Shown here: in pieces, positions 796 through 51,199 of the stretch | Numbering within the stretch: position 1 is the first letter of the stretch | How the letters are laid out: the number at the start of each line of letters is the position of its first letter | Assembly: GCA_963971425.1 (NCBI GenBank) | Contig: OZ020515.1 | Coordinates: 3,960,678 to 4,024,677, forward strand | DNA: 64,000 bases | Source of the DNA: Bryoerythrophyllum caledonicum | Taxonomy: Eukaryota > Streptophyta > Bryopsida > Pottiales > Pottiaceae | Direction of reading: 5' to 3' | Notes under the pieces: model-generated | What the model was told of the DNA's origin: nothing | Database searches by the model: none | Seen by the model: the letters and a program-made list of their open reading frames with translations, nothing else | Position numbers and translations under genes: made by a program

Positions 796-2505
796 GTCGC
801 CGTTTTTAGTCGACCCAAACTTCCTTCAAGAGTCCATCAAATTTTTCAATAAAATAATCAAAATCTGACAAGATCTGCACCGTTTGATGAAAGATGCCAA
901 ATTTTTTGGCTGATTTTTTTTGGCGTGAGTGAAAATGGCTGATTTTTTTGGCGTCGGTGAATTTTTCATACCCTAAAGCTTGAATTTTGCGAAAGGTTTG
1001 ATGATTGTGAGGTCAATTGGAGGCTCAATTTGTGGCCAAAGGCCTTTGGCTTTGCCGCCGGCTACGCCCGGCCACCACGGCCCCCCTTCCCTCAATTGCG
1101 AGGGCATGAAGGGCGTTGGCGTTGGGATTTGAGCCCTAGCCTCCCCCAATTCAACTAACACACTCTCCACTAAGCCCTACCTCCCTCCTTGATGTCCAAT
1201 GCCTCATTCTCCTTTAACCCCTAAAGGACCAGAGTCTCCTTCGGGGGGATTTCTGATTTTGGGCAGGTTCCTAAAATTAGAAAAAAAAAAATCGTTTTTC
1301 TCTCAATTTTTTATTCTAGATTGCCTCTAATAAGAGCTTCGTGGACATATTTTTATTTTATATTTTATTTTTTGGATTTGTGGTTTGAAACTTAGTACCA
1401 CTTAAAGCCAAAAGTGGGGACACCGGGCACCTCCAAGATTTTTGACAAAAGTTTCTATTGACATTGAGATTTTTCACATATGTAAGGAATACTTCCTTTT
1501 TTGGAAATTTTCAAAAAAAAAATGTCTTTAGTGTAAAAAGGCATTTTATTCCAAGTCAAACATTTTCACACATTTGCAGGCAACGGGGGAAAAAAACTTC
1601 ATCTTTTCTACATAAAACCTAGAGATCTTCATATTTTACACGTTTTATTTTTTCAACAACAATATGTGGTGAAAACCTTTTTATTGACCGTTTGGATTAT
1701 CATTTGAATACATACTAGTTCACAAAAAATATAAAACGTGAAATGGCAATTTTTGAACCTCCACTCCTTGCACACTTGTTTTGAATATGCTACACCCCTT
1801 TCTTACCTCTAAAAATTGGTGTGTTGGGAAATAACATCATGCTTAAGACAATGGTAAGAGATTTAGACCTTGTACAATGCAAAAATTTGATACAAAGTGA
1901 AGTCAAAGTCTGCTGATCTACTCAACACAGGGAAGAAAATGAACCATTGATTTGACTTTAAACACTATAATCTATCAATCCGTGCGGTGGATTGCAACCA
2001 AAATTACAGGGCATGTTTATATTGAAGTCTACTTTAAGATCTTACGGTTGAAAAATCCAAAATTCACTTTAAAATGTGATTTTCATGTCTCTTTTTGGCA
2101 GTGGCAGTTTTGGACTGGTTTTAGAGCGAAAGTGGTCGTGGTCCTTTAGGGGTTAATGCAATTACAATTTTTGTTTGAGCTTCCCACGGTGTGTTGAAAT
2201 TGATTTTCCAAGGCCATTTTTGAGCACTCTCACTAATATTTTTCATTTCTTTTGCATAGGATTTGACACATAGGAAAATTGCTAGTTTTTGCCTACTATA
2301 ACATATTTCAAAATGCCTACTATAACATATTTCATTACCATGAAAATCAAAAGTAGAACAAGAGTACGTTCCCTTCTAGAATCCATGGTAAAATAATGAG
2401 AGAGGAAAATTTCAGAAAATTAATTCATTCACATAGTAAAAAGTGAGTGGAATCTTGGCAAATGATGTGGGGTTTGGACTTTGGACTTGGGCTTTGGGGC
2501 TTCAC
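796..2505 (+). repeat. Left arm of a large inverted repeat (~1.7 kb)
   Basis: This stretch is nearly identical to the reverse complement of 7351-9061. The outer junction GTCGCCGTTTTTAGTCGACC (796) mirrors 9061. The inner junction with the duplicated GGACTTTGGACTTGG motif (2470-2505) mirrors 7351. Reading frames in the two arms translate identically (973-1170 against 8686-8883) or with one change (1952-2149 against 7706-7903), so the duplication is recent. Each arm carries the same TTAA-flanked element at the same place, so that element was present before duplication. The small frames inside look non-coding. Beyond 2505 the arm continues to a TIR-like end, GGCTGCTTCACACC on the minus strand, next to a TAA at about 2627. 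The arm may therefore be part of a Harbinger-like element that includes the gene at 1-740 (inference). Confidence 0.85.
1218..2152 (+). mobile_element. TTAA-flanked TIR element, family 1 (935 bp), copy in left arm
   Basis: It begins CCCCTAAAGGACCA and ends with the inverted TGGTCCTTTAGGGG form (with a slightly diverged inner part). A TTAA lies immediately outside each end (1214-1217 and 2153-2156). No transposase-size frame exists, so this is a non-autonomous element. The TTAA duplication and CCC-start termini resemble piggyBac elements and also Sola3. Family 1 copies lie at 7703-8638, 22442-23396 and, interrupted, at 41428-46358. Confidence 0.8.
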
Positions 2506-2887
2506 ACCACAACCGCCCAAAGGCGTCAATATGTATATTTTTTAATGTTTTTTTATTCCAAAAATTTGGGCATAAATTTTGACCGACGGACTCTCAACTC
2601 GGCCCGGTGTGAAGCAGCCTTAATGTCCACCTTTGGTGAAATTTTCAGAATTTTTTGTATTTAATATGAATTTTCTTCACTTCTTCAGAAAATCTCAATA
2701 ATTTCAAATTTTCACCAAAAAATCTGTGATTTCTATAACCTAATTGAGATATGATCTCATCTCTATAAAGTTTATAATAAAAAGTTTAAAATTTTTAAAA
2801 TCACTTATATCTGATGAGAAACTACAGCAAATAGTACATTGGAAATTTTAGATTGATGCCACGGTCATAGGCTCCGTCGTTTAAGGG
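2506..2887 (-). mobile_element. Arm flank plus half of a TTAA-flanked element, family 2
   Basis: 2506-2630 runs to a TIR-like end (GTGAAGCAGCC read on +) that abuts TTAA. From about 2640 to 2887 the sequence is the reverse complement of the left half of family 2, also seen at 9706-9965. Shared features are the GGTCATAGGCTCCGTCG and TTTAAGGG end and the internal calendar of AT-rich words. It stops at TTAA (2888-2891). The other half of this copy is absent, which suggests the arm element inserted into it. Confidence 0.6.
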
Positions 2888-2891
2888 TTAA

Positions 2892-3990
2892 CCCTAGAAC
2901 GTCGAAGCGGACACAAAGTGTCCGATGAATGAATTTGAGATCTGACACTGGACGATAGACAACGTTTTCTCATCCAAAATCATCTTCCCAACTTCCTCCA
3001 TGGCTGAGACTGTGAGTGCATGCAGAAGATTTTTGTACACCTCCCGAGGTGCTTATTTTTGTTGGTTTATAGAAGAAGATGCCTCATAAATGGACAATCG
3101 TGGCCCATGTGCAGTCTTGGGTACAACATGACCAGAGAAAAAAATTTGAATGGGCATACAAGGTCAGAGTTCCAAGTTCGTGAAAAAACCAGTGTTTCGG
3201 GCAATGAAAAAATTTATTTTTGTTTTGGGCAGTTTGCCATGTCATACGGATGAATAGTGCATTGGTGGAATAGTGCATTGGCGGAATCAAACAGCCTCGT
3301 GGGCACGGGCAAGCCAAAGAATGATGGGCAGAACATACTGTAGAGCTAGGCGGAATCCTAGAGAGATTTTCCTGCCCGTATTGCCCATCAACTAGAAATT
3401 AGGAAGTACGCCCTGATTTTGGATTCCATACACAACCGCATAAGAGAGAGTGCATTATTGGGAGTTAGTTTGTTTTAGAGCATGTAGAGCTTGCAATCGC
3501 GGTAGTGAGATGCTGTAAACTCATAACATACAGATGTGTTTTATGACTGATTTCAGCAAATATTGCAAACTGCTGTATACACAGGTTGTATTCACAGGCT
3601 AGATTTACAAGGTCACTCGTACGAAAATTCTTGTGTAGTAGAAGTTCCAATGTTGTTTTCCTTATAAGTTACACCTACAGCTTGAAGAAATTCTAGACAC
3701 GGTAACCAATCCAAGTCAAAACCATACATGAATGCAGATTTTCTGATGCTGCCCATATTCTGAGAATATCACCTGCCGTCCTCATCTCACAGAAATCGAC
3801 GTTGTTCCGGCAAACACAGAATCAGTTTTGCACTCTCCGAGAATGGTAACTGCTATTAGTACTTCGTGCATCATGAGTTCACTGGAAAAAGTCTCTCTTG
3901 ATGCGCTGATTCTCACCTTTCCAGCATGCCCACGGTAATAGGCATGAAGGCCCTTCATCATCCACGGTGGTGGGCTCCGACGTTCTAGGG
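2892..3990 (+). mobile_element. TTAA-flanked TIR element, family 3 (1,099 bp)
   Basis: It starts CCCTAGAACGTCG and ends CGACGTTCTAGGG. TTAA stands on both sides (2888-2891 and 3991-3994). CCCTAGAA with a TTAA duplication is very close to the classical piggyBac terminus. The interior has no long conserved frame; the frames at 3020-3253 and 3782-4114 show no recognisable domain. The left TTAA is shared with the family 2 half ending at 2887, so two insertions abut on one target site. Confidence 0.75.
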
Positions 3991-4148
3991 TTAATATGTG
4001 TTGCAGACAAATCCTGGATCCACATCTTGTGTGCAGACAGATTGTACAGACACTAGAGTCTGTATTACAGACAATTGCTGGGGTCCACAGATTGTGCAAA
4101 CACAGATTGTACACACTAGAGTCTGTACTGCAGACAAAATACTAGACT

Positions 4149-4504
4149 CACTACACTTATTTCAGTACTTAATGTTACATCGCATTTAGTGTTGTAACCT
4201 TTCTTCACCACAAAGCTCTAATAATGTTTCTCTAGAAAATTAGGGCTACATTTCAACCACAAGATTTCTTTTCTTCACTTTTTGGTACACTTTGTAGTAT
4301 TTTGTTATTTCCTAATTTTCTACATATGATTTCTTCATTAATAACACTAAATGCATAGGTAATAAAAGTCCAAAGTCACAATTCTTTGCATTTAGTGTTC
4401 ATGTTGACATTTAGTGTTGTAACATTATTGGCTTCATTGACATACAGTGTTAGAGTTCGTAATTAGTGTCTCAAACACTAAATACCAAAATTAGTGTAGT
4501 GAGG
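4149..4504 (+). mobile_element. Small TIR element with CTCACTACACT ends (CACTA-like MITE)
   Basis: The termini are CTCACTACACTTATTT and AAATTAGTGTAGTGAG, a clear terminal inverted repeat. Inside, TTTAGTGTTGTAA-like words recur several times near the ends, as subterminal repeats do in CACTA elements. No convincing target duplication was found. Similar TAGTGTAGTG words occur near 22030, 59640 and 60230, so related fragments probably exist there. Confidence 0.5.
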
Positions 4505-4589: not shown

Positions 4590-5271
4590 CCCTAAAGGAC
4601 AGAGCCTATTACCATGGCATCAATCCCAATTTCCACTTCACTGTGTGTTCTATTTCTTCATTAAATATAGGTGGAATTATTTTATTTAATTTTTTCTCAG
4701 ATGATATCACATGTCCTGCTTATGTCACAAAAATTGCAGATACTTTGGTAAAAATTTATTATGTTCGTGATTTCCCAAAGAAAAAGTGAAGAAAATTCAT
4801 ATCAAATACAATGTTAGCTTCAAAATTTTGAAAATTTCACCAAAGATACACATTACACTGCCAAAACTTGGGGTGAAGATGAAACTTTTGTTTTTAGCTT
4901 AAATTAGTAAATTGGTCAAGCATGGTTACAGGCCCAAAGTTCAATTTCATGTATTTTTCCAAAAATTTAATTGGAATGGAAACTAGACTTTATAAGCTTT
5001 GTTTCATTAGTTGGATTCAAATTTGAAAAGTATCAATTGAATTACTCAAATTCAAATTTAGAGCAAAAGTTTGAAGTTTCTAAAATACACTACATTGAGA
5101 TCCATGTCACAAAGGTTTTCTTCTCTAGATAAAACATGATTACATCATCTATTACTTGAACATTCAATGAATTCTCCAAAAAGAATTGGATGAAAAAGGT
5201 CATTCACATAGACTATCATCCTTGACATATCATCCAAGAAGCCAATTTTTGGCTCCTGTGACATTCAAGGG
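4590..5271 (+). mobile_element. TTAA-flanked element, family 2, complete copy (~680 bp)
   Basis: It begins CCCTAAAGGACAGAGCC and ends GACATTCAAGGG directly before TTAA (5272-5275). The left flank is imperfect (TTAT). Its left half matches 9706-9965 and the reverse complement of 2640-2887. Its right half matches 9250-9701, including the words AAGCCAATTT and CATTCAATGAA. It is the only copy here with both halves joined, so it serves as the reference for the broken copies. No coding capacity is seen. Confidence 0.6.
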
Positions 5272-7141: not shown

Positions 7142-7350
7142 TTAGTCATGTGACTAAGCCACCAAACATGAATGCTTCTCAAAGAGTTTAATAACATCTT
7201 CATGTAGAAGAATTCACTTGGTCATAAAGTGTGCATTATACATAAATGACAAGTTTTCTCCTCTAAATCTCTATGGAGCACTATGGAAAGGGAATGTTGT
7301 GCATGATTTGTGATGTGATTTGTGATAGAGTGAATGTTGAGATGATATTG

Positions 7351-9061
7351 TGAAGCCCAAAAGTCCAAGTCCAAAGTCCAAACCCCACATCATTTGCCAA
7401 GATTCCACTCACTTTTTACTATGTGAATGAATTAATTTTCTGAAATTTTCCTCTCTCATTATTTTACCATGGATTCTAGAAGGGAACGTACTCTTGTTCT
7501 ACTTTTGATTTTCATGGTAATGAAATATGTTATAGTAGGCATTTTGAAATATGTTATAGTAGGCAAAAACTAGCAATTTTCCTATGTGTCAAATCCTATG
7601 CAAAAGAAATGAAAAATATTAGTGAGAGTGCTCAAAAATGGCCTTGGAAAATCAATTTCAACACACCGTGGGAAGCTCAAACAAAAATTGTAATTGCATT
7701 AACCCCTAAAGGACCACGACCACTTTCGCTCTAAAACCAGTCCAAAACTGCCACTGCCAAAAAGAGACATGAAAATCACATTTTAAAGTGAATTTTGGAT
7801 TTTTCAACCGTAAGATCTTAAAGTAGACTTCAATATAAACATGCCCTATAATTTTGGTTGCAATCCACCGCACGGATTGATAGATTATAGTGTTTAAAGT
7901 CAAATCAATGGTTCATTTTCTTCCCTGTGTTGAGTAGATCAGCAGACTTTGACTTCACTTTGTATCAAATTTTTGCATTGTACAAGGTCTAAATCTCTTA
8001 CCATTGTCTTAAGCATGATGTTATTTCCCAACACACCAATTTTTAGAGGTAAGAAAGGGGTGTAGCATATTCAAAACAAGTGTGCAAGGAGTGGAGGTTC
8101 AAAAATTGCCATTTCACGTTTTATATTTTTTGTGAACTAGTATGTATTCAAATGATAATCCAAACGGTCAATAAAAAGGTTTTCACCACATATTGTTGTT
8201 GAAAAAATAAAACGTGTAAAATATGAAGATCTCTAGGTTTTATGTAGAAAAGATGAAGTTTTTTTCCCCCGTTGCCCGCAAATGTGTGAAAATGTTTGAC
8301 TTGGAATAAAATGCCTTTTTACACTAAAGACATTTTTTTTTTTGAAAATTTCCAAAAAAGGAAGTATTCTTTACATATGTGAAAAATCTCAATGTCAATA
8401 GAAACTTTTGTCAAAAATCTTGGAGGTGCCCGGTGTCCCCACTTTTGGCTTTAAGTGGTACTAAGTTTCAAACCACAAATCCAAAAAATAAAATATAAAA
8501 TAAAAATATGTCCACGAAGCTCTTATTAGAGGCAATCTAGAATAAAAAATTGAGAGAAAAACGATTTTTTTTCTTCTAATTTTAGGAACCTGCCCAAAAT
8601 CAGAAATCCCCCCAAAGGAGACTCTGGTCCTTTAGGGGTTAAAGGAGAATGAGGCATTGGACATCAAGGAGGGAGGTCGGGCTTAGTGGAGAGTGTGTTA
8701 GTTGAATTGGGGGAGGCTAGGGCTCAAATCCCAACGCCAACGCCCTTCATGCCCTCGCAATTGAGGGAAGGGGGGCCGTGGTGGCCGGGCGTAGCCGGCG
8801 GCAAAGCCAAAGGCCTTTGGCCACAAATTGAGCCTCCAATTGACCTCACAATCATCAAACCTTTCGCAAAATTCAAGCTTTAGGGTTTGAAAAATTTACC
8901 GACGCCAAAAAAATCAGCCATTTTCACTCACGCCAAAAAAAATCAGCCAAAAAATTTTGGCCTCTTTCATCAAACGGTGCAGATCTTGTCAGATTTTGAT
9001 TATTTTATTGAAAAATTTGATGGACTCTTGAAGGAAGTTTGGGTCGACTAAAAACGGCGAC
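7351..9061 (-). repeat. Right arm of the large inverted repeat
   Basis: This is the reverse complement of 796-2505 with only scattered differences. Beyond 9061 it continues for ~185 bp (9062-9246) to a TIR-like end GTGAAGCGGCCC followed by TTA, opposite in sense to the end at ~2627. The left copy has one terminus and coding DNA beyond the core. The right copy has the other terminus and a short tail. The right copy may therefore be an internally deleted derivative (inference). Confidence 0.85.
7703..8638 (-). mobile_element. TTAA-flanked TIR element, family 1, copy in right arm
   Basis: It carries the same CCCCTAAAGGACCA termini as 1218-2152, in reverse. TTAA is at 7699-7702 and 8639-8642. 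It is nearly identical to the left-arm copy because it was duplicated with the arm. Confidence 0.8.
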
Positions 9062-9249: not shown

Positions 9250-9701
9250 CCTTATAGTGCCAAAACTTGTGGTGTAAATGAAAGTTCCGTGTTCACCTAA
9301 AATTAGAACCATGGTTGTAGGTCCATGTTCAAATTGCAATAACTTATTTAGTTTTACGTTTTTTTTTTGAATTTTCGAAATGGTATGGGAACTAGACATC
9401 ATTAGCTTCATTACATTAGTTGAACTGAAATTCAAAAAATATTGTTTTGATGGATCAAATTCAGATCTAGAGCTAAAGCTAGAAGTTTCTCAAATTCACT
9501 GTATAGAGATCCGTGTGGCAAACATTTTATTCTTTAGATAAAACATAATCACCTCAATGATGCCAATTTCATCATCATCTAATACTTATACATTCAATGA
9601 ACTCTCCCTAAAAAAATTTGGATGAGAAACGGTTGTTTACATTGAATTATCCAACAATGTCATCCGAGAAGCCAATTTCTGACTGCTTTGGCGTTTAAGG
9701 G
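9250..9701 (+). mobile_element. Right half of a family 2 TTAA element
   Basis: It matches the right half of 4590-5271 and ends GGCGTTTAAGGG before TTAA (9702-9705). The left half of the copy is missing where the arm element's end (9246) abuts. Confidence 0.6.
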
Positions 9702-9705
9702 TTAA

Positions 9706-9965
9706 CCCTTAAACGGCGAAACCTATGACCGTGGCTCAATCTAAATTTTCAATCAAGTGTATGCTCTAGTTTCTCACTAAGTATGAGTGAAATTTTTTAT
9801 TTTTATTTTTCAGGAGATGAGATCATATGTCTCAATAATGTTTAAAAAATCACAGATTTTTTGTGGAAATTTGAATTTATTGTGATTTTCTGAAGAGAAG
9901 TGGAAAAAAATCACATTAAATACAAATTACGCTAAAAGTTTATGAAAATTTAAATAAAGGTGGGA
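9706..9965 (+). mobile_element. Left half of a family 2 TTAA element
   Basis: It begins CCCTTAAACGGCGAA after TTAA and matches the left half of 4590-5271 and the reverse of 2640-2887. The match fades after about 9965. Two family 2 halves thus share one TTAA. Confidence 0.55.
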
Positions 9966-9969
9966 CATT

Positions 9970-10468
9970 CTAGAGCCAAAACTTACCAACTCTATAAAAA
10001 GGCTCTAGATCTGCAAAAATGAGAGGGCCAAAAAAAATGAGAGGGTGCCATTAAGACAAGGGCCCACCTCCCCGAATACGCTCGTAGCTGCCCAGAATTA
10101 CAGAGACCCCAGATTAAGGCTCAGTTGGTTCGAACGCACATTTGCAATTTGACTGTAACCATGCTACGAGCGTAGCCATCACGGTGCAGTAATTTGCATT
10201 CAACTTCCGAATTTTAATTTCCTCGGCTACCCACGTGAAATTTTCTCAATGTGCGGGAAAGTTCGTCACGACGCAAGGCAAATATTAGGCAGGGATGTCA
10301 TAGTTGGCCATCATTTTCCGAACCAAAGTTTCAGTTGTAGGCCAACACTTGCAGCCCTGAAGGTTAGAACACCGACTTGCGTGTAGAAGTCGTGAGGTCA
10401 CTTCTGTTTGTTGCGGTTCCTTACATCCTTTTGATTTCAGCTACAATTACAGCTTGTTCTCAGTGAGT
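9970..10468. other. Upstream/leader region of the DUF247 gene
   Basis: Base composition becomes more balanced from about 10060, as expected for promoter and 5' leader. No clear TATA box or repeat was found. Confidence 0.4.
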
Positions 10469-10555: not shown

Positions 10556-10581
10556 ACTAGCTATTCCATCAGCTACGCGCC

Positions 10582-12048
10582 ATGATCGAGTCTAGCATAG
10601 TTGAAATGGTTCAGCTTCTCATACATGAGACTCTGCACGAGGCTCGAGATGTGATGGAGTCGGAACGGAGTCGGGTCTTCGAGGTACCGTCGCAGTTGCG
10701 AGCTCTTTCTCCTGCCAGTTTCCAGAACAAGGGGTTGCAACTCGGGCTTCACCATCGCACCATCGCGCAGAGTCCGTCTCAGACAGAACTTCTCAAATTC
10801 GACATAGCTCGCATCCTACACTTGAAGCTCACCACGAGGAACGGCTCATGGGAGAGGTTTGCGCAAAACGTCGTTCGAGATGTGAACAGTGTGCGGCGAG
10901 TCTACTCAACGAGCTCTGCCAAGTTCACGGATGAGGAGATTCAGCACCTCTTGGCTATGGACGCGCTTTTCCTGGTTGTTCTCTTCAAGTACTTCAATGG
11001 TAAAGAGTTTTTCTTGCGAGAGTTTGCAGCCTTGGATGAGCGATTGAGAGAAATGACATGCATAGACAAGACTGATTTCTTCCTCGTCGAAAATCAGGTG
11101 CCCATGTATCTGCTCCAATCTGCCATTAGGCAGCTCTGTGAGATTGATGACGGGAGACTAGTTGATCCAAATTTCCAAATAGAATTACAAGTTGAGGATG
11201 AGCTGGAGAAGATTCTGAATGCAGCCGTTCTCGACCTTAACCCTTTCACTTTCCCAGAAGAGACCACTCTTTTCGGATGTTCCCAACAAACCTCGTCCAG
11301 CAGCAGAGACAGACTTCATGGACACTTGGTTTCGACGTACCCTGTCGTACCCTCGGAGAAATCTCTCATAAATTGTCAGCATATTCTGGATTGTCTGTAC
11401 AGAGTCATCTGTGGGCACTCGTTACCTTTCGTGGTTGAACCAGGTGTGGAAGCGAATCTTGCTTTGGAGACCATACCATCTGCCACACGGTTGGAGATGG
11501 TTGGCATCCGCGTCGTGGGCGCTGTGGCAACCTTGAGAGAGGTCAAGGTTAGTGGGACGGGATATCTGAGAAGTGCCAAGTTACAGCTCCCGAAGGTGGC
11601 GTTATACGATTACAGCGAGTCTGCATTTCACAATCTTGCGCTTCATGAGCAACTGGTGTCAGAAGGACTTTGTGGAGATTTGAGATGCTACCTCCAGTGC
11701 ATGGCCTCTCTATGCGTGAACGTCTCCGACACACAGATCTTGTGTGAGGAAGGAGTCATCAACAACCACCTGGGTAACGACACCCTGCTGGGCATGTGGG
11801 ATCGGACTTTGAAGGGACTGTTGACCCCATACCCATCAAGCTCCTGGGTGAGAAATTACCAGAGCATTCATCGACATCGAAACACACGGTTGAAGAGATG
11901 GCGGCGGGAATGTTGGGCTCTGTTCTTTGCGAAACCATGGACTGTTGTGAGTGTGGTCGGAGCTATCATCCTGTTGTTTCTTCAAGCTACACAAGCTTGG
12001 TTTACGGCATTTCCACGGAATGAAGTAAGTCCGGGTCCTACCTCATAG
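10582..12048 (+). CDS. DUF247 family protein
   Basis: Intronless frame of 488 residues, within the usual length of the plant-specific DUF247 family. Family signatures appear in order. Near residue 33 is VFEVPSQLR with LGLHHR some 20 residues later. Around 130-140 is an ALFLVVLFK stretch, then DFFLVENQVPMYLLQ near residues 171-185 (the family's L-ENQ-P motif). In the second half are ATRLEMVGIRVV, YDYSESAFHNLALHEQL, a cysteine-containing CMASLCVNVSDTQIL block, and GVINNHLGNDTLLGMWDRTL. The C-terminus has a Trp-rich basic stretch followed by one hydrophobic segment (VVSVVGAIILLFLQATQAWF), typical of these putative membrane-anchored proteins. Family members often occur as intronless genes; some grass members act in self-incompatibility, but no function can be assigned here. 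It is preceded by a small upstream ORF. The ATG at 10582 fits the family N-terminus. Confidence 0.9.
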   Translation: MIESSIVEMVQLLIHETLHEARDVMESERSRVFEVPSQLRALSPASFQNKGLQLGLHHRTIAQSPSQTELLKFDIARILHLKLTTRNGSWERFAQNVVRDVNSVRRVYSTSSAKFTDEEIQHLLAMDALFLVVLFKYFNGKEFFLREFAALDERLREMTCIDKTDFFLVENQVPMYLLQSAIRQLCEIDDGRLVDPNFQIELQVEDELEKILNAAVLDLNPFTFPEETTLFGCSQQTSSSSRDRLHGHLVSTYPVVPSEKSLINCQHILDCLYRVICGHSLPFVVEPGVEANLALETIPSATRLEMVGIRVVGAVATLREVKVSGTGYLRSAKLQLPKVALYDYSESAFHNLALHEQLVSEGLCGDLRCYLQCMASLCVNVSDTQILCEEGVINNHLGNDTLLGMWDRTLKGLLTPYPSSSWVRNYQSIHRHRNTRLKRWRRECWALFFAKPWTVVSVVGAIILLFLQATQAWFTAFPRNEVSPGPTS

Positions 12049-22441: not shown

Positions 22442-23396
22442 CCTCTAAAGGACCAAGTGTCGGAAATGGGCTTTTTGAAAATTCAGTCAAGTTCCTTTGC
22501 TGTCAATTTCCAACATTCCTCGTTGAATTTTTTACTATAAAAAGGCATTACCAAGATCTTAGTGAAAAAATATTTTTTCCTAAATTGGACATTTGATGAA
22601 AAAGTTATAGGGTTTTGAATTTAAAATGGGCTCCAAATGGGGAGAGCGGTCACCTTGGGCACCTCCAAAAACCTTTACTAGGACTCTCTATTGAATGTGA
22701 GATTTTCAGTACTCACAAGTAATATTGTTTCCCTTCATATTGTCAAAAACAAGTTCGTGTCTTTAGTGAAAAATAGCATACCAAACCAAGTCAAACATTT
22801 TTGCACATTGTCACTCATTGTTGGGCAAGGTACCAAAAAACTTCTTCTTTTCCACATAAAACCTAGATATCTTTATATTTTTCACTTTTTAATTTTTTCC
22901 ACAACAATGTGTGGTGTGCACCTTCTTCTTGACCATTCGGATTATCAATCTAAAACATATTAAGTTCTCAAAAAACTAAAGTGTGAATTGGCAAATTTTG
23001 AACCTCCACTCCTTGCACATTTGTTTTGTATATGCTACACCCGACCTCTACCTCTAAAAATTGGTGTACTAGGAACTAACATCATGCTTAACAAGATGGT
23101 AATGGATTTAGACCTTGTGTAGTGCAAAAATTTGACACCAAGTGAAGTCAAAGTCTGCTGATCCACTGAACGCATGGAAGAAATTGAACCATTTGCTTGA
23201 CTTCAAACATTATAATATTTCAATCCGTGCGGTCAAAGTTTATGAAATTTTGTGAGTATATTACTTAATAAGTCTTAATTGAGATCCTACCGTCATAACT
23301 AGAAATCAAAGTTTTTGTTTCCTTCTTTGTTCGTTGCACTAGAATCCAACAATTTTGAAGTAATTTTGGTGTAAATTTGTCACGGTACCTTAGGGG
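22442..23396 (+). mobile_element. TTAA-flanked TIR element, family 1, diverged copy (955 bp)
   Basis: It begins CCTCTAAAGGACCAAG after TTAA (22438-22441) and ends GGTACCTTAGGGG before TTCA (one mismatch in the duplication). The interior aligns throughout with 41428-42261 plus 46265-46358, for example GACATTTGATGAAAAAGTTA and GTCAAAGTCTGCTGATCCAC. It also aligns more distantly with 1218-2152. It provides the empty-site comparison for Harbinger copy 2. Confidence 0.8.
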
Positions 23397-32719: not shown

Positions 32720-32965
<246 letters not shown>

Positions 32966-39657: not shown

Positions 39658-41021
39658 TAGATTTTTTGTACTAGTGCTGCCATATGGCCTTCCATCATAT
39701 GCAAGAATGAGGAAGTAGACTTGAAACTATCAATCATGTCTTTGCTATTTTGAATTGAAGCTTCTAGATGTCCTTCTAGCCTATCTGCCTTGCTTTTCTT
39801 TTGAATTGATTGATGCTCTAATGCCTTGTTAGGTGTTGGTGACTCCATGACGCTCTCTTGAACACTTGCTGGAATTTGATTTCTTACACTTGCCCTTGTT
39901 CCATTCCACAAATCCATGTGGTCAAACCACTTATTCTGTTGGTGGCGGTTATTTCCCGAAATATCATATAGCGCTTGTCATTCTTGTATTCGGTAAGTAA
40001 ACTTCTGTGCTTCTTTTTGCAAGATAAAGCAATTTGAGTACATCCTCGAATTGTTGTTGCCATGCGCACATGTACCTTCAACCAAGCATTTTGACCTTGA
40101 TCAAAAAATATGTAAATTGTTAGTTATGCTCATGTACAATCTTCATGCAATAGGAGTGCTCTAAAATGCTCAAAAACATCATTAAAGGCTTGAAAATGGA
40201 CTTGAAAATGTTAGGACAGCACACAATAAATCACAGAAATAGTAGTATAGGGAGGTTTTTATCCAACACTAGTACACCGGAAGTTAGTAGGCTTGGTGGT
40301 TAGAGTAGTGTGAGGCCTTCGAGGGAAGGCTCTAGCACTTTTTCTTCTCAAGATTTCTCTAAGTCCAAAAATATTGCAAATATGTAGATCCTCTAGAAAA
40401 TTGATAGATTTCAGTACATACCTTGTTTTTTGGCCGCCTTGGAAAATTCTTCTTCCAACTCGCTATGGATAGCTATTAATGTGTCCACTTCGTCATCCTT
40501 CCACCTCAAATTCTCCTCTTCTTCGTCTTCTTCCTTGTCACCTTCTCCTTCTTCATGGACTTCTGAACCGGGAATTGTTGCTTCGTCTTTCTTCTTAGTG
40601 GCCTTTCCCGCAATCACTTTGGTCTTCTTTGCACCTTTCGCCTTTGCTGGACCTCTGCCTCTCTTCTTTAGAACAAGTTTTGGCTCTCCTTCTTTCTTCA
40701 CCTCCAACAATACATTCTTCTCCATGTCACTCAAACAACTAGGTTGTGAATAATATGGAGGCTGAAAAAAATCTCGAGATTGTGAAAACATTTGAGGAGG
40801 AGCTGATATCCAACTGCCTGAAGGTCATTGTCACAACACGACACCCTACAAAAGGAAGATTCCAGCACATTTTTGCCCTTCTCTTGAAATGCACTTGTCC
40901 TCAAAGACGGACCATGGGTCTGAAATTGAGGAATAGAAGAAGAAGACATCATCCAAGCTGAATTCTGACTAAAATTTTGAGACTCTCTTCCTTCAACATT
41001 TTGAAAATACCCTCCTTCCAT
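39657..41021 (-). pseudogene. Harbinger copy 1 Myb/SANT-like protein gene, broken
   Basis: Two exons (41021-40422 and 40095-39657) match the partner gene of copy 2. The SANT/trihelix-like domain spans the intron: LRWKDDEVDTLIAI before it and NAWLKV, ALSCKKKHRSLLTEYKNDKR after it. Compared with copy 2, a frameshift near 40815 breaks exon 1 and another near 39975 breaks exon 2. It keeps the Gln and Trp codons that are stops in copy 2. The intron contains remains of a SINE-like insert. In PIF/Harbinger systems this second protein helps import the transposase and bind the ends. Confidence 0.8.
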
Positions 41022-42804
41022 TGCCCAATAATTTTTTTTTAAAAAACACACACACACACACACACACTATTGCAAAACTTACAAGGCAAAACAACTTCAA
41101 AGAGCTTCAAAAAATTGAAAACATGAGACAATCGCTTCCCTATTTAACTCAAATATTTAGGGTTCGTTAACAAACTCAGATTTTAAAAACTAAGGCTTTC
41201 AAAAAATAAAGAGGTTGCATTCTCACGCCATCAACAGTAAATGTGACTTCTTTCTTCGATGAACAGTATTAACGAGAAAGAAGTTGTCAAAAAAATTCAG
41301 TTAAAAAATAGTCAGAATTCAGCATTAAAATATTATAAATGATTGGCTGAAATACATTCTGAAAAATACTCTCTTTGCCTTCCGGAAATACAACCTCCTA
41401 GAGGTTGTAGGAAATAAGTCTCCTTAACCCCTAAGGTACCAAGTGTCCAAAAAGGGCTTTTTGAAAGTTCGGTCAGGTTCCTATGGTGTCAATTTCCAAC
41501 ATTCTTCTTTGAAATTTTTGCTATACAAAGACATTACCAAGAGCTTAGCGGGAAAACAATTTTTTCCTAAATTGGACATTTGATGAAAAAGTTATAGGGT
41601 TTTGAATTTTAAATGGGGAAGGCGGGCACCTCGGGCAGCTCCAAAAACTTTTGATAGGACACTCTATTGAAAGTGAGATTTCAGTACTCGCAAGTAATAT
41701 TATTTCCCTTCATGTTGTCAAAAAAAAGTTCTTGTCTTTAGTGAAAAATAGCATACCAACCCAAGTCAAACATTTTCACACATTGTCACTCATTGTCGGG
41801 CAAGGTACCAAAAAAACTTCTTCTTTTCCACATAAAACCTAGAGATCTTCATATTTTTCACTTTTTATTTTTTCCACAACAATATGTAATGTAAACCTTC
41901 TTATTAAGCATTCGGATTATCAATCGAAAACATATTAAGTTCAAAAAAAATTAAAGTGTGAATTAACAAATTTCGAGCCTCTACTCCTTGCACACTTGTT
42001 TTGAATATGCTACACCCCGTCTCTACCTCTAAAAATTGGTGTGTAAGGAGCTAACATCATGCTTAATAAGATGGTAATAGATTTAGACCTTGTGTAGTGA
42101 AATTTTTTGATACCAACTGAAGTCAAAGTCTGCTGATCCACTAAATGTAGGGAAGAAAATGAACCATTTGCTTGACTTTCAATCCATGCGGTCAAAGTTT
42201 ATGAAATTTTGTACATGTATCACTCAATAAGCCTTTATTGAGATCCTTCGGTCAGAACTAAGGGGCTGTTAACATCTAGATGGTTTGGGCTGGAGCCCAA
42301 AGAATTCCCGAGTTTTGATTGGAGTAAAGAATTGGTACCCCAGAAATGGGTTTACATCAAGCAAAATGCGGGTTGTGGCCCAAAATGTTTTCCGTGGATG
42401 AGAAACCTAGTTGGAATCCTACATGGCAGATTTGAATAGTGTTTTACGGAACTTAAGGAGACTTATTTCCTACAACCTCTAAGAGGTTGTATTTCGGGAA
42501 GGCTGGGAGAGTATTTTTCAAAACGAATTTCAGCCAATCATTTATAATATTTTAATGCTGGATTTTGACTATTTCATAACTGAATTTTTTTGACAACTTC
42601 TTTCTCGTTAGTACTCTTCATCAAAGAAAGAAGTTACATTTACTGCTGATGGTGTGAGAATGCAACGTCTTTATTTTTTGAAAGCCATAGTTTTTAGAAT
42701 CTGAGTTTGTTAACGATCCCTAAATATTTGAGTTAAATAGGGAAGCAATTGTCTCATGTTTTCATTTTTTTGAAGCTCTTTGGCCTTGTAAGTTTTGCAA
42801 TAGT

Positions 42805-42994
42805 GTGTGTGTGTGTGTATATGTGTGTGTATGTGTGTGTGTATGTGCGTGTGTATGTGTGTGTGTGTATGTGTGTGTGTATGTGTGTGTGTATGTGTGT
42901 GTGTATGTGTGTGTGTATGTGTGTGTGTATGTGTGTGTGTATGTGTGTGTGTATGTGTGTGTGTATGTGTGTGTGTATGTGTGTGTGTGTGTGT
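42805..42994 (+). repeat. (GTGTGTAT)n microsatellite inside Harbinger copy 2
   Basis: A run of GTGTGTGTAT-type units about 190 bp long, followed by a T tract. The equivalent site in copy 1 (41047-41067) is only ~20 bp of plain dinucleotide. Frames through it (Cys/Val or His/Thr runs) are not genes. Confidence 0.95.
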
Positions 42995-43011
42995 TTTTTT
43001 TTTTTGGGGCA

Positions 43012-44520
43012 ATGGAAGGAGGGTATTTTGAAAATGATGAAAGAAGAGAGTCTCAAAATTTTAGTCAGAATTCAGCTTGGATGATGTCTTCTTCTTCTAT
43101 TCCTCAATTTCAGACCCATGGTCCGTCTTTGAGGACAAGTGCATTTCAAGAGATGGGCAAAAATGTGTTGGAATCTTCCTTTCGTAGGCTGCCGTGTAGT
43201 GACGATGACCTGCAGGAAGTTGGATATCAGCCTCCTCCTCAAATGTTTTCACAATCTCGAGATTTTTTTTAGCCTCCATATTATTCACAACCTAGTTGTT
43301 TGAGTGACATGGAGAAGAATGTATTGTTGGAGGTGAAGAAAGAAGGAGAGCCGAAGCTTGTTCCAAAGAAGAGAGGCAGAGGTCCAACAAAGGCGAAAGG
43401 TGCGAAGAAGACCAAAGTGACTGCAGGAAAGGCTAGTAAGAAGAAAGACGAAGCAACAATTCCAGGTTATGAGGTCCATGAAGAAGGAGAAGGTGACAAG
43501 GAAGAAGACGAAGAAGACTCGGAGAATTTGAGGTAGAAGGATGACGAAGTAGACACATTGATAGCTATCCGTGGCGAGTTGGAAGAAGAGTTTTCCAAGG
43601 CGGCCAAAAAACAAGGTATGTACTCAAATCTACCAATTTTCTACAGGATCTACATATTTGCAAGATTTTTGGACTTACTGGAATTTTGAGGAGCAAAAGT
43701 GCTTGAGCCTTCTTGAGCCTTCGCTTGGTGCCATAAAGGGCCTATTGGGCCCCCTTGAGGCCCCCCTTTCCCCCCAAATTCCGGCCGGAATCGGAGTGCG
43801 GTGACCAAGATGGCACCGCCGGAGATCGAACCCGCCACCTCTACTCTCCCCTCAAAGGCCTTACACTACTCTAGCCACCAAGCCTACTAGCTTCCAGTGT
43901 ACTAGTATTGGATAAAAAAGGCTCCCTATACTACTATTTCTGTGATTTATTGTGTGCTGTCCTAACATTTTCAAGTCCATTTTCAAGCCTTTAATGATGT
44001 TTTTGAGCATTTTAGAGCACTCCTATTGCATGGAGATTGTACATGAGCATTACTAACAACTTACATATTTTTTGGTCAAGGTCAAAATGCTTGGTTGAAG
44101 GTACAGGTGCGTATGGCAACAACAATTCGAGGATGTACTAGAATTGCTTTATCCTGCAAAAAGAAGCACAGAAGTTTACTTACCGAATACAAGAATGACA
44201 AGCGCCTATATGATATTTCAGGAAACAACCGCCACCAACAGAATAAGTGGTTTGACCACATGGATTTGTGGAATGGAACAAGGGCAAGTGTAAGAAATCA
44301 AATTCCAGCAAGCGTTCAAGAGAGTGTCATGGAGTCACCAACACCCGACAAGGCATCGAAACATCAAACAATTCAAAAGAAAAGCAAGGCAGATAGGCTA
44401 GAAGGACATCTAGAAGCTTCAATTCAAAATAGCAAAGACATGATTGATAGTTTCAAGTCTACTTCCTCATTCTTGCATATGATGGAAGGCCATATGGCAG
44501 CACTAGTACAAAAAATCTAG
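43012..44520 (+). pseudogene. Harbinger copy 2 Myb/SANT-like protein gene with two stops
   Basis: Exon 1 is 43012-43615 and exon 2 is 44081-44520, with a GT-AG intron. The N-terminus is Ser/Gln-rich; a Lys/Glu stretch with KKRGRGPTKAKGAKKTK looks like a nuclear-localisation signal. The SANT-like domain follows, then a C-terminal helix with SIQNSKDMIDSFKSTSSF. TAG at 43270-43272 (CAG in copy 1) and TAG at 43534-43536 (TGG in copy 1) interrupt exon 1. Both are transitions. The intron holds a SINE-like insert. Confidence 0.85.
43690..43890 (-). mobile_element. SINE-like insert in the Myb-like gene intron
   Basis: On the minus strand GCTTGGTGGCTAGAGTAG (A-box-like) is followed by GGCGGGTTCGATCTCC, a good B-box. 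The body is different from the other SINE family and no (TTC)n tail is seen. Copy 1 keeps only both ends near 40285-40350, so the insert predates the divergence of the two copies and was deleted internally in copy 1. Confidence 0.6.
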
Positions 44521-44522
44521 GA

Positions 44523-45893
44523 CTAGGTGCTCATATCAGATTCACTATATGAATCATCAAACATAATTGTAGCATCTTCTCGCATATGATACTCCCAAAG
44601 TGCTTTTGCTATGCAAATATGTGAATCAGTTGCCTCTCGAAGCAATACAGACTCTTCTTCATTTTCCTTGATTAAAAATGCCTTCGCAGCTTCACCTTCG
44701 TCCTCTTCTACAATTCTAATTGGCTCGTCTCTTCCAACTCCTATCCTTCTTCTTACTTCAGCAATTGCAACTTGTTCGCCTTTAAGCTCTTGCCCTGTAG
44801 CTACTTCTCCTTCTTTAATTCTTCGGTCTAAGTCATCTTCATCAATTTGGATCCACTCCCGATCAGACCTATCCGTTGAAAGGATGCAAATATTGTGTAA
44901 AACAATACAAGTAGCAACTACATCCGGCACAAATTTCAGAGGACACTCCATACGTTTCATAATTATCCGCCACCTACATTTTAGAATTCCGAAAGCACGT
45001 TCTACACACATTCGGGTAGAGCTTTGAATAAAATTCCAATGAGCTTTATATGGTGGAAGACAAACATCGACCCCTCCCTTAAAAGGTGAATATATCCACG
45101 GCCTCACTGGATATGCCGCATCTCCAATCAACTTGTATGGTAACAATCCTCCTTCAATGCATTTTCTACCTACTTTTGTAAGCTTGAAGACCGTACAATC
45201 GTGCATGCTTCCTGCCCATCCAAATTCATAATCCCAGAAAATGCAATTTGTGTCAACTATACCTTGTAGTAATGCGGAGTGGAAAGATTTTCGACAATAG
45301 TAATCTTCACCTCCAACTACTGGTGCTAAAATCGGTATATGAGACCCGTCTATGGCACCTACTACATAAGGAATGCCATGTAATGCCTCAAAGTCCCTTG
45401 CTAATTTTTGTAATTTAAATTCATTCGGAAACTTCACAAATTTTTTTTGAAGATGTAATCTCACCGTACTACAAAATTGTCTCACTATGCCTGAAACGGT
45501 AGATTTTGCTACTCCAAATAAATCACCTACAATTTGCAATCCATTTCCACTTCCAAGATGGATTAGAGAGATTGCTATCCTTTTCTCAATAGAAATTGCA
45601 TTTCTAAATTTTGTATCATTTTTCTTTAGAAATGGACCCAATTCTACACAAAGAAATTGGAAAGTACGGTGGGACACTCTAGTTCTCCGTTTAAACATTA
45701 ATTCCGTGTAGGAACCCATCAAATGCCTATAAAAAAAACCCTCTTGCCTCTGAGTGCTCCACACACCTCTCTCCCTCGTATTCCACAATTCACATAAAAC
45801 TACAAGCAATGCTGAATTTTGCAATTCAAAGCCCATCATGAGGGCTTGCATGCTCAAAACATGTTGAATCAACATATAACACGACCAATACAT
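44523..45893 (-). CDS. PIF/Harbinger transposase (HARBI1-like), apparently intact
   Basis: 456 codons from the first in-frame ATG. Order of features: MGSYTELMFKRRTRVSHRTF, a helix-turn-helix region (RIAISLIHLGSGNGLQIV, FGVAKSTVSGIVRQF), then the DDE nuclease. Catalytic residues are Asp in VGAIDGSHIP (about residue 182), Asp in GSMHDCTVF (about 232) and Glu in CVERAFGILKCRWR (about 298). The intermediate DAAYPVRPWIYSPF and the C-terminal LHNICILSTDR are standard family blocks. Compared with copy 1, the extreme N-terminus (MDRRKQALVV) is shifted out of frame by a 2-nt loss near 45905. Translation from ATG 45893 would drop only a few residues. The enzyme excises and inserts elements at TTA/TAA sites. 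Its partner gene next door has two stops, so the element may depend on a partner elsewhere. Confidence 0.9.
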   Translation of the reverse strand: MYWSCYMLIQHVLSMQALMMGFELQNSALLVVLCELWNTRERGVWSTQRQEGFFYRHLMGSYTELMFKRRTRVSHRTFQFLCVELGPFLKKNDTKFRNAISIEKRIAISLIHLGSGNGLQIVGDLFGVAKSTVSGIVRQFCSTVRLHLQKKFVKFPNEFKLQKLARDFEALHGIPYVVGAIDGSHIPILAPVVGGEDYYCRKSFHSALLQGIVDTNCIFWDYEFGWAGSMHDCTVFKLTKVGRKCIEGGLLPYKLIGDAAYPVRPWIYSPFKGGVDVCLPPYKAHWNFIQSSTRMCVERAFGILKCRWRIIMKRMECPLKFVPDVVATCIVLHNICILSTDRSDREWIQIDEDDLDRRIKEGEVATGQELKGEQVAIAEVRRRIGVGRDEPIRIVEEDEGEAAKAFLIKENEEESVLLREATDSHICIAKALWEYHMREDATIMFDDSYSESDMST

Positions 45894-46808
45894 AGCTAGC
45901 ACCCTAGGGCTCGTTTTCTTCTATCCATGATGCCAAAAAGCGAAAAAAATGGCCCAAAATTGAGAGAGATAGAACAAAACAACACACAAAGATGTAGGCA
46001 AATGTAGAATACAAGAAATTCTTTCACTACGGGGTAATTCTAGAAAGAGGCCGTTTTCATGCAACTACTTAGAAATTCAGCCCAAGTGCACAATGGGCCA
46101 CAACCCTTCCATTCGGGTTTACACCAAAACTTTGGGCCACAACCCACTTAGGACTCCCTTGTTTGGTGGAAGGTACCCCGCTTACAATGGTTTCATCCTT
46201 CAAGCGGGGTACCACTTGTGTTTATGGGCTCCAACCCAAACCTTCAGGTGTAAACAACCCCTAAACATCAAAGTTTTTTTTACCCTCTTTATTCATTGCA
46301 CTAGAATCCATTCATTTTGAAGTGTTTTTGGTGTAAAACTGTAACGGTACCTTAGGGGTTAAGTTCCGTAAAACACTATTCAAATTTTCCATGTAGGATT
46401 CCAACTAGATTTCTCATCCACGGAAAAAACTTTGGGCCACGGCCTGCATTTTGCTTGATGTAAACCCATTTCTGGGGTACCAATTCTTTACTCCAATCAA
46501 AACTCGGGAATTTTTTGGGCTCCAGCCCTAATCATCTAGATGTAAACAGCCCCTTACCTTATCTCGAGTGTAAATGAGTTCTTCACCAACACAAAATATA
46601 AAGATCTGAAGTTACAAATTGTCTCCATTTTGTGTTGCAACATGAGCGGCGCTGTTGACATTTAGTACAATATGTGAGTTCCATTATTAGCGTAGAGAAT
46701 TGTGGAGTTACGACGTCGGTTGTCTCGGGATTCTGCGACGACGTTGTCTCGAGTCGTTGTTGTGTGTCGCGGCGTCAGGACCCGCGAGGACTGCTGCTAC
46801 CAGTCACC

Positions 46809-48587: not shown

Positions 48588-49390
48588 AACCAACCAGGTA
48601 TCGCCATAGAAAAATGTGTTGTGTGTCTTGTCATTGAAGTTTAGGTCAACTGAGCAGTCAGCTCCTTGTTTGTTCCGTGCTTTCTTTTGTAAATGACATG
48701 GCACTGGTTGGTTCTCCGGCAATCATAAGCCTTGATGAAGAGGTAGTTAGTGTGATGGCATGCCAGGTTAGTTGTATGTACAATTAAACTTCATGTTGGA
48801 GTTTGTTTACAGTGTCAGACCGTTACTTATCTGGGCAATCATGTTCCATGATACATGCTTTAATGGAGAGCGAGTTAGTATGATATTTATGATAAGTATG
48901 ATGGCTCATTTGTATACCTAGCTGAATTTGAAACCCTTACAAAGTACTTCTTGGTTGACTCAATCTCGTTCAAATGTCGGTCCTATTTCTGTCTCTGATT
49001 GATGTTTGTATGTTAGTTGAATGTGCGATGGGCCTACTATAAAACCTTGGCTGAATTTAGCGCTTAAAGATACTTGTGCAGACAAAGTCATGGCTTTTAT
49101 TATTGATCATGAGCCTTGTGTTTTTTGACAATTTTTGTGGATGTGGGGGATGGTGATTTGGTCAATAGTATTTGGTTAAAGTTTGTCATGCTTTTAGCTG
49201 TGTGGAGGAGCTCCCAGCTCAAGTTTCAATGGAACTGGAAAGGGGGTGATACACTTTAAATGCATGACATTTTTGCGTGAAAGTTTCAAACATGGAAAGA
49301 CCTCCATGTGCAATCTTGCAGCTCATGACACATCATGGGGTGTATTGTTACTATCTTTGTGGTATTGCTATTCCCAACACCTTTAACCCT
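48588..49390. other. 3' UTR and intergenic DNA after the HMA gene
   Basis: No further gene or terminal repeat recognised up to the first TTAA element at 49391. Confidence 0.5.
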
Positions 49391-49394
49391 TTAA

Positions 49395-50194
49395 CCCTTT
49401 AGCGCTCAGGAAGCCCGAAATGGGACTCTGGAGGTGCTAAAACTCAATTTGCATGAAATCCATGAGGAATTAGGCTTCAAGATACCAAGTTCAGATTTGC
49501 GCACACATTAAATGAACACTCTCCAACAATCATATCATGATTTGGATTTATAGAACTCTTGGAAAAGCTAGGAATGCAACACAAAATACACCAAATACAC
49601 TAAAATACAGTGAATACAGTGAATACCATGCCACATACTATGTTGTATTTCACACATATGCACATTGATTTTGGTCTTAAACTTTGATTGAACTCTGTCT
49701 TTAAGACATTCTTCATTGATTTGTGACTGTTGATCTCTCTCCTCACATACGAAACTTTTGTTTTGATTGGTATAAGGTTGGAACATTTTTGTATACAGTC
49801 AAGTAGAAGAAAAAAAAAAAATCACCAATAATTGTGTATATTTATTTTCTTCACATATGATATGTCAATGCGAAGCTATCAACCTAGTGCACAAGTGAAC
49901 CGCTCTAATTTAAAGCAAAAAAATTCTTGCAAGAATCTATTGATGGATAAAGTAGTACACCCTCCAAAATCCAGAGTTTTCACTACCTGTATACGGTAAC
50001 TTTAAACACTATAATCTATTCCATCAACGGTTGGATGTTGTACAAAACTGTCGCAAAGTTCAGGTCATGGTTAAGTTCAATTTTGTAAGGTTAGATATTA
50101 ATATTAGGCATTGTATTTCCATCAAATCCGGTTCAAAGAAAAAAATTCAGCAGAAATCTTGGTTTTTCCAAAAACATCTTTGGGCGGTAAAGGG
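49395..50194 (+). mobile_element. TTAA-flanked TIR element, family 4 (800 bp)
   Basis: It starts CCCTTTAGCGCTCAGG and ends GGGCGGTAAAGGG, with TTAA at 49391-49394 and 50195-50198. A second CCCTTTAA lies just before the left TTAA. No coding capacity is seen. Confidence 0.7.
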
Positions 50195-50198
50195 TTAA

Positions 50199-50488
50199 CC
50201 CTTTAGCGCCTTAGCCCTCTTTTGTACGACTGGATTCTAGGAGTGTACTAGATCATGAAGAGCATCCTCTATGGAGTGGGTACATTTCATTGTGAATACG
50301 CTCCATGGAAACGAGGCTAGCAGTCGATCCTCATGGCCAATTTGCACGCAAACGGTCTCATTAGAATCTTTGAAACCTCTTGCACGTCCGTTGTGAAGAG
50401 TATTTTGGACCATGCTTCCTTAATTCATCACTACGGTGCAATTTTATCCCCCTAGAGACCACATTTGGGCCTTCCCGGCTCTGAAGGG
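50199..50488 (+). mobile_element. TTAA-flanked TIR element, family 4, short copy (290 bp)
   Basis: It starts CCCTTTAGCGCCTTAG directly after the TTAA shared with the previous element and ends GGCTCTGAAGGG before TTAA 50489-50492. Its inverted right end (CCCTTCAGAGCCGGGAAG) resembles the left end of 49395-50194, so the two belong to one family. Confidence 0.7.
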
Positions 50489-50492
50489 TTAA

Positions 50493-50741
50493 TTCTTAAA
50501 TGTCAGTCGGGAATTGTACATACAAGCATGTATTTTACTTTGTAGAATGCACATATATTGCTTTGTAACATACAAAAAATGTGTTAGAGTTTAGCAAGAC
50601 TTACACCTTTGGATTGAAGATTCTTCAACTAACATCTTTCATTTGTAGGTCATTTCAGTATCTGAATCTTATTATGTTCAAGTACGACATTGTACATGTA
50701 GGATATTGTGGCCACTAGTGGCACCTTCTAACGTTTAAGGA
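50493..50741 (+). mobile_element. TTAA-flanked element, family 5 (249 bp)
   Basis: TTAA at 50489-50492 and 50742-50745. It contains CGGGAATTGTACATAC, ATGCATGTATTTTACT-like words and GTGGCCACTAGTGGCACC. The reverse complement matches 50802-51030. Confidence 0.7.
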
Positions 50742-50801
50742 TTAACCCATGTTGGTTGGCTAATATGGCACAAGTTGTCTTCACCCAAAGTATTAGCTTA
50801 A

Positions 50802-51030
50802 CCCTTATTAAATGTCAAAAGGTGCCATTGGTGGCCATATTATTCTACATGTATGGTGTTGTATTTGAACATGCTAAGGTTCAAATATTGAAATGACCTC
50901 CAAATGAATGATGTTAGTTGAAGAATCTTCAATCCAAAGGTGTAAGTCTTGCTAAACTTTAATTCATTTTCTATATTCTACACAGTAAAATACATGCATG
51001 TATATACAATTCCCGACTAATGTTCAAGGA
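50802..51030 (-). mobile_element. TTAA-flanked element, family 5, inverted copy (229 bp)
   Basis: TTAA at 50798-50801 and 51031-51034. It is the inverted homologue of 50493-50741, separated from it by ~52 bp. The pair could fold into a hairpin. Confidence 0.7.
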
Positions 51031-51199
51031 TTAACCTTTAATTTGGAAAAAAGTTAATTTAGAAAAAGGTAGTTCGGCTTTCATGAAGGCAAATAGTATA
51101 TTGAGTTTAGCTTATTTTGACGACCATAAGTTGAACCAAAGCCTCTGACCTCCAATTTGGATTCCTCATGCATGTGCTCTCAATGGTCAAGGCTTTTCC

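What the first reader, a model, noticed from the sequence alone, without database searches (positions are those of the whole stretch)
1214..51034. Many TTAA-flanked elements with CCCTAA/CCCTAGAA/CCCTTTAG ends in a plant genome
At least five families lie between TTAA duplications with inverted CCC-starting termini: 1218-2152, 7703-8638, 22442-23396, 41428-46358, 2892-3990, 4590-5271, 49395-50194, 50199-50488, 50493-50741 and 50802-51030, plus halves at 2640, 9250 and 9706. An empty site is visible for one. TTAA specificity with CCCTAGAA-like ends is the hallmark of piggyBac and is also reported for Sola3. piggyBac is prominent in animals and, as far as I know, rarely described in land plants. 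No TTAA transposase is visible here, so the mobiliser must be elsewhere.
Basis: partly seen in the sequence, partly recalled or inferred. Interest (0 to 1): 0.85.

Follow-up and report, generated by a model that had tools for sequence, protein, structure and literature searches.

The report
Native piggyBac transposons in a plant
A plant genome, probably a moss, carries many small mobile DNA pieces and full-length relatives that belong to the piggyBac family, which is best known from insects and other animals and is only rarely described in plants.

Summary
End pairs of the CCC...GGG kind next to TTAA are far above chance in the window.

One family (936 bp) has many dispersed copies. Of 34 insertion events whose edges I read, 30 are flanked by an identical 4-bp direct repeat: 29 TTAA and one CTAA/CTAA, which shows a target duplication. 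An empty site lies inside the window.

The genome gives 120 piggyBac transposase (PF13843) matches, best E 6e-81; none listed lies in the window. Two complete elements with open transposase frames have the same kind of ends and TTAA on both sides. Catalytic aspartates are kept in the 18 of 30 transposases examined.

Corrections: 41428-46358 is a 928-bp element split by a nested 4.0-kb PIF/Harbinger; 1218-2152 and 7703-8638 are one insertion in an inverted duplication; two elements have one imperfect flank.

A LEAFY gene marks the host as a streptophyte, probably a moss. The kind is known; host and abundance are notable. That these transposases moved each small family is inferred, with a longer sequence match only for the M family.

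The parts
1218..2152 (-). M-family piggyBac-type MITE (copy M1), TTAA at 1214-1217 and 2153-2156; 14-bp inverted ends
   Evidence: same insertion event as 7703-8638
7703..8638 (+). M-family MITE (copy M2), TTAA both sides; query for 40 scored genome copies
796..2506 (.). one arm of a 1.7-kb inverted duplication carrying M1
7349..9061 (.). other arm of the inverted duplication, carrying M2 (99.2% identical)
22442..23396 (+). M-family MITE (copy M3), TTAA left, TTCA right
41428..42258 (+). left part of M-family MITE (copy M4), TTAA at 41424-41427
46262..46358 (+). right part of M4, TTAA at 46359-46362; its first three bases are the TAA duplication of the nested Harbinger
42262..46261 (.). nested PIF/Harbinger element (4000 bp, TAA duplication), not part of the TTAA family
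42259..42574 (-). empty-site copy (TTAA at 42453-42456) matching the joined flanks of M4, 316 gap-free columns at 93%
2892..3990 (+). P-family element, ends CCCTAGAACGTC, TTAA both sides
4590..5271 (+). S-family element, left flank TATT, right flank TTAA
2621..2886 (-). left half of a second S-family copy
9252..9701 (+). right half of an S-family copy
9706..9984 (+). left part of a further S-family copy, next to TTAA
49395..50194 (+). T element, CCCTTTAGCGC ends, TTAA both sides
50199..50488 (+). U element, shares TTAA with T and V
50493..50741 (+). V element, diverged ends, TTAA both sides
50802..51030 (-). W element, related to V (78%), TTAA both sides

Best explanation
The TTAA elements in the window are non-autonomous (MITE-like) piggyBac-superfamily elements. 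A piggyBac transposase, made from full-length piggyBac elements elsewhere in the same plant genome, binds their CCC-starting ends, cuts them out and inserts them at TTAA, duplicating the four bases. Shown: the 4-bp duplication across dispersed copies, an empty site, and full-length piggyBac elements in the same genome with the same kind of ends, TTAA flanks and conserved catalytic residues. Inferred: that these transposases moved these particular families, and that any copy is active today.
For: Duplication: 12 of 14 events and 18 of 20 events (after correcting one-base alignment offsets in three copies by eye) have an identical 4-bp direct repeat; one is CTAA/CTAA, which a TTAA built into inverted repeats would not give. 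P family: TTAA on both sides in 5 of 5 copies with two readable ends (window, L053, L122-L124); L125 has lost one end and a C11 copy runs into N. Empty site. Transposases: 120 PF13843 matches, all over cut-off; L035 against T. ni piggyBac in the PDB E 4.9e-30, against piggyBat 1.6e-29. Complete elements: L045 2278-6229 (3952 bp) and L043 107-5100 (4994 bp), TTAA on both sides. The end motif, written without TTAA, lies directly after TTAA at 20 of 42 sites in 241 kb not chosen for TTAA; reversed-motif control 0 of 13. M-family right ends match the left end of L039 at 23 and 22 of 30 bases; inner 24 bases 16 matches against a null mean of 9.6-9.7.
Against: No autonomous element was found whose two ends both match one MITE family well; outside the M family mostly the first ~12 bases are shared. 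The right end of L039 is uncertain: a second CCCCTAAAGTCG end at 5782, a nested M-like copy and 200 N. Four of 34 M events lack an identical 4-bp repeat, each off by one base. The motif count includes the window that suggested the motif. No expression or mobility data. Sola3 and Kolobok transposases were not searched.
Confidence: 0.93

Rival explanations
1. The TTAA elements are moved by another TTAA-specific superfamily (Sola3 or Kolobok), and the resident piggyBac copies are unrelated to them.
For: Both are recalled to make TTAA duplications; most MITE families here share only about 12 end bases with the piggyBac elements.
Against: Complete piggyBac elements in the same genome have the same end motif and TTAA, and the M right ends match a piggyBac element beyond the motif. 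No Sola3 or Kolobok element was seen, but none was searched for.
Confidence: 0.04
2. The elements belong to PIF/Harbinger, whose transposase lies inside 41428-46358.
For: DDE_Tnp_4 ORF (E 1.6e-24) and a Myb-like ORF below cut-off lie in that interval.
Against: They sit in a separate nested element with TAA duplications and GGGGCTGTT ends; without it the TTAA element is 928 bp, close to the 955 bp of 22442-23396. The TTAA elements duplicate 4 bp.
Confidence: 0.01
3. The pattern is chance or telomere-like CCCTAA sequence, not transposons.
For: TTAACCC alone is common: 24 in the window against a shuffle mean of 9.35 and a maximum of 21; many TTAACCCTAGAA sites show no clear partner end.
Against: Shared 0.9-kb sequence with ends and TTAA at exact boundaries in dispersed copies with mostly unrelated flanks, and an empty site.
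Confidence: 0.01

Closest known systems
piggyBac superfamily (Trichoplusia ni piggyBac, PDB 6x67; piggyBat, PDB 9c0f)
   Same: TTAA duplication, CCC..GGG ends, DDD transposase (PF13843), C-terminal cysteine-rich segment
   Different: Plant host; 24-29% identity to the two animal proteins in the aligned core; long N-terminal open frames (longest frame up to 983 aa); two complete elements of 4.0 and 5.0 kb against 2.1-3.5 kb in beetles (PMC12732532, passages)
piggyBac MITEs of angiosperms (a list entry in PMC10004981, passage)
   Same: Non-autonomous plant elements assigned to piggyBac
   Different: That passage only lists the superfamily; here full-length elements and dispersed TTAA duplications are shown in one genome
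PIF/Harbinger
   Same: Present in the window, nested in one TTAA element
   Different: 3-bp TAA duplication, DDE_Tnp_4, GGGGCTGTT ends
Sola3 and Kolobok
   Same: TTAA duplication (recalled)
   Different: No such transposase was seen here; not searched by profile

Membership tests
piggyBac superfamily | 4-bp TTAA target duplication | tested here: met
   30 of 34 M-family events have an identical 4-bp direct repeat (29 TTAA, 1 CTAA); of the 40 scored copies 5 partial ones were not read and the window pair counts once
piggyBac superfamily | Short inverted ends beginning CCC | tested here: met
   M inverted end 14 bp; V and W ends are diverged
piggyBac superfamily | PF13843 transposase with three catalytic aspartates in full-length elements | tested here: met
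   L035 matches T. ni piggyBac, and the first two motif aspartates fall on T. ni 268 and 346; four D columns kept in 18 of 18 aligned, out of 30 loci (17 were chosen by motifs holding the first and third D and one by hand, so only the second and fourth are free of selection)
piggyBac superfamily | C-terminal cysteine-rich domain | tested here: met
   strict pattern in 4 of 30 longest frames (L023, L024, L035, L037; others are truncated or do not fit the pattern); two cysteines invariant and four more columns of C at 90% or above in 12 chosen sequences
piggyBac superfamily | Window MITEs share longer end sequence with full-length piggyBac elements | tested here: inconclusive
   first ~12 bases widely shared; clear longer match only for the M-family right ends to L039, one end only
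piggyBac superfamily | Seamless excision restoring TTAA | not testable with these tools
   needs an assay or population data
PIF/Harbinger | 3-bp TWA duplication at the TTAA elements | tested here: not met
   duplication is 4 bp
Sola3 / Kolobok | Their transposase in elements with these ends | not tested
   no profile was searched

The most novel reading that the evidence does not exclude
A land plant, probably a moss, hosts a native, multi-lineage and recently active piggyBac system: several diverged transposase clades with open frames and near-identical dispersed copies, cross-mobilising perhaps thousands of short TTAA elements, so that piggyBac is a major resident transposon of some plants rather than an animal speciality.
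Probability: 0.45. Interest if true: 0.68.

Novelty: new member of a known kind. Interest (0 to 1): 0.52.

Why it matters
piggyBac is a standard gene-transfer tool whose natural history is written almost wholly from animals; a 2025 paper calls plant occurrences occasional and names red algae (PMC12732532, passage). A plant with 120 transposase matches in several clades gives material to ask how plants acquired and kept piggyBac, and offers plant-adapted transposases to test.

Tried and rejected
I first took the DDE_Tnp_4 transposase in 41428-46358 as the mobiliser and withdrew this on reading the nested TAA-flanked Harbinger. A partner search around TTAACCCTAGAA sites with a loose best-match rule was uninformative: 31 sites, 21 with a 9-of-12 'partner', 8 of those 21 at TTAA (the 8 include three elements counted from both ends and two near-identical loci), and most others look like chance matches. 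I replaced it with the motif count and the copy edges. M-like DNA beside piggyBac ORFs is not used as evidence of descent: copies lie at different places and orientations, and the family is abundant. A viral-contig scan with the transposase alignment gave 25 pattern matches and no relative. PDB search with the Harbinger ORF: none at E 0.01. Rfam (gathering threshold) and tRNA scans of the window: none. A genome-wide count of CCCCTAAAGGACCA with and without TTAA was asked and never answered; the T element (49395-50194) was asked twice and never answered.
Full report
What was checked. A script confirmed TTAA|CCC...GGG|TTAA at most of the stated coordinates and showed the exceptions: TTCA right of 22442-23396 and TATT left of 4590-5271. 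Pairs of matching ends next to TTAA number 11 in the window against 0.37 on average and at most 3 in 100 shuffles; without the YCY start condition 28 against 8.37 (maximum 15), partly made by large inverted duplications. The bare string TTAACCC is a weaker signal: 24 against a mean of 9.35 and a maximum of 21 in 200 shuffles.

Anatomy of the window. The 1218-2152 and 7703-8638 elements are one insertion copied with a 1.7-kb inverted duplication (796-2506 / 7349-9061, 99.2%). The 41428-46358 interval holds a PIF/Harbinger element of 4000 bp with TAA duplications (42262-46261), carrying a DDE_Tnp_4 ORF (E 1.6e-24) and a Myb-like ORF below Pfam's cut-off (E 0.0013); the remaining TTAA element is 928 bp. 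Its flanks are part of another copy of that Harbinger, so the inner copy shows the empty site: 316 gap-free columns, 93% identity, one TTAA. Families by DNA similarity: M (1218, 7703, 22442, 41428), P (2892), S (4590 and halves), T (49395), U (50199), V/W (50493, 50802).

Target duplication. A genome search with 7703-8638 scored 40 copies out of 6176 first-look candidates; the 40 are 90-100% identical and 35 are full length to within one base. Edges were read for 15 loci (14 events, because the window pair is one): TTAA on both sides in 12 of 14; L071 (TAAA) and L078 (TTGA) differ by one base on the left. For the 20 other full-length copies, after correcting one-base alignment offsets in three of them by eye, 17 have TTAA/TTAA, one has CTAA/CTAA, and two differ by one base (TTAA/TTAG, TCAA/TTAA). 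Five partial copies were not read. The 200-bp flanks of the 15 loci are mostly unrelated; besides the window pair, five pairs share some repeat DNA. The CTAA/CTAA copy is a direct, not an inverted, repeat, so the four bases are target and not element. Thirteen dispersed copies average 95.0% pairwise identity (range 93.9-98.2), as after a burst. For the P family, the window copy, L053 and three ~141-bp internal-deletion derivatives have TTAA on both sides; one derivative has lost an end (L125), and one longer copy runs into a gap (L127).

Transposase. PF13843 gives 120 matches, all above cut-off; some are pieces of one gene, so loci are fewer, and only 116 of 305 candidates were scored. Control genomes: 0 of 14, names not shown. 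None of the listed places lies in the window. Of the 30 loci cut out, 19 have no stop inside the match. L035 (955-aa frame) matches the T. ni piggyBac chain at E 4.9e-30 and piggyBat at 1.6e-29; the first two motif aspartates fall on T. ni 268 and 346. In 12 aligned transposases that I chose, D603, D683, D796 and D799 are invariant; in 18 of the 30, 17 picked by motif and one by hand, all four are kept. Core identities among plant copies range from 32 to 100%, and to the two animal proteins from 24 to 29%. L039 (C3) and L040 (C9) are 99.4% identical over 5.1 kb.

Complete elements. L045 2278-6229 (C11) and L043 107-5100 (C9) run from TTAA to TTAA with matching CCC ends (12 of 16 bases each) around an open transposase frame. 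L041 and L042 share one end, at which their similarity stops at TTAA. L039 is flanked by TTAA with CCCCTAAAGT ends, but its right end is uncertain. For the other four of the eight longer stretches (L040, L042, L044, L046) and L041, two ends were not established in the DNA held. In L039 and L044 the left end abuts an M-family copy at the same internal TTAA. The end motif, written without TTAA, follows TTAA at 20 of 42 sites in 241 kb that were not chosen for TTAA; its reversed control at 0 of 13. Duplicate sites were collapsed only when identical, so related copies can count more than once, and part of this DNA is the window that suggested the motif.

Link between small and large elements. Beyond the ~12-base end, only the M family gives a clear longer match: the right ends of 22442 and 41428, which are related to each other, against the left end of L039 (23 and 22 of 30; inner 24 bases 16 matches, null mean 9.7 and 9.6, p 0.000 and 0.002 in 500 shuffles; 21 ends were tested). 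The P left end and one S end also give p 0.002, against L039's uncertain right end; another S end gives 0.010 and the U right end 0.016. The M left ends and the T, V and W ends do not stand out (p 0.048 or more).

Host. The genome holds a gene with LEAFY SAM and DNA-binding domains, and the window a DUF247 gene. PMC6588583 (passages) reports LEAFY in streptophytes and its absence from many chlorophyte genomes, so the host is a streptophyte. The same passages say that sites 312, 345 and 387 define LEAFY types, and that type II occurs mainly in mosses and in one liverwort. In my reading of the exons these sites are D, C and H; the site numbering and the identity of D/C as type II are recalled. 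Moss is therefore likely, not shown.

Literature. Searches on piggyBac and plants; on Sola3; on LEAFY. Passages seen: PMC3902484 and PMC10140906 list plants among piggyBac hosts; [quoted passage not shown] PMC6890710 tabulates 1230 PiggyBac-labelled repeats in a fern; PMC8319324 one in a grass; PMC10004981 lists piggyBac among angiosperm MITE superfamilies; PMC12946498 mentions PiggyBac repeats in longan; PMC10045372 states that piggyBac and IS1380 share 4-bp duplications and CC..GG ends. None of these passages describes full plant elements with TTAA duplications, but I saw passages only, and the library omits most subscription papers and Repbase, so no claim of a first report is made.

Verdict. 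The elements are non-autonomous piggyBac-type transposons, and their superfamily is present as full-length copies in the same genome. The kind is known; the host and the scale are unusual.

Noticed in passing
window 42262-46261 and 38363-41427 with 46359-46556: Two copies of a PIF/Harbinger element, one nested inside the other by way of a TTAA element; the inner one keeps a 465-aa DDE_Tnp_4 frame and a Myb-like ORF.
   Followed up: partly
window 796-2506 and 7349-9061: 1.7-kb inverted duplication at 99.2% identity; S-family halves in opposite orientation beside its two arms suggest an inversion of the segment between them.
   Followed up: partly
window 25596-33280 (-) and 51286-59434: Non-LTR-retroelement-like ORFs (RVT_1 and endonuclease matches below cut-off, RNase H over cut-off) with a long glutamine run, and related sequence in inverted orientation.
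   Followed up: no
window 10561-12048 (+): DUF247 gene (495-aa open frame, E 8.1e-44).
   Followed up: no
L039 about 633 and L044 about 1228: Two different piggyBac elements begin at the same internal TTAA (after CATGC) of M-family copies.
   Followed up: partly
G000:C15:3166984-3167908 (edges L084, L104): M-family copy with CTAA/CTAA instead of TTAA on its two sides.
   Followed up: yes
L122, L123, L124: About 141-bp internal-deletion derivatives of the P element (first ~105 and last ~35 bases), TTAA on both sides.
   Followed up: yes
G000 C12, C7 (two), C11, C2, C15: Six further weak LEAFY SAM-domain matches besides the clear LEAFY gene on C7, perhaps fragments or paralogues.
   Followed up: no
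window 49383-50745: T, U and V lie end to end, each sharing one TTAA with its neighbour, as if inserted at one another's target sites.
   Followed up: no
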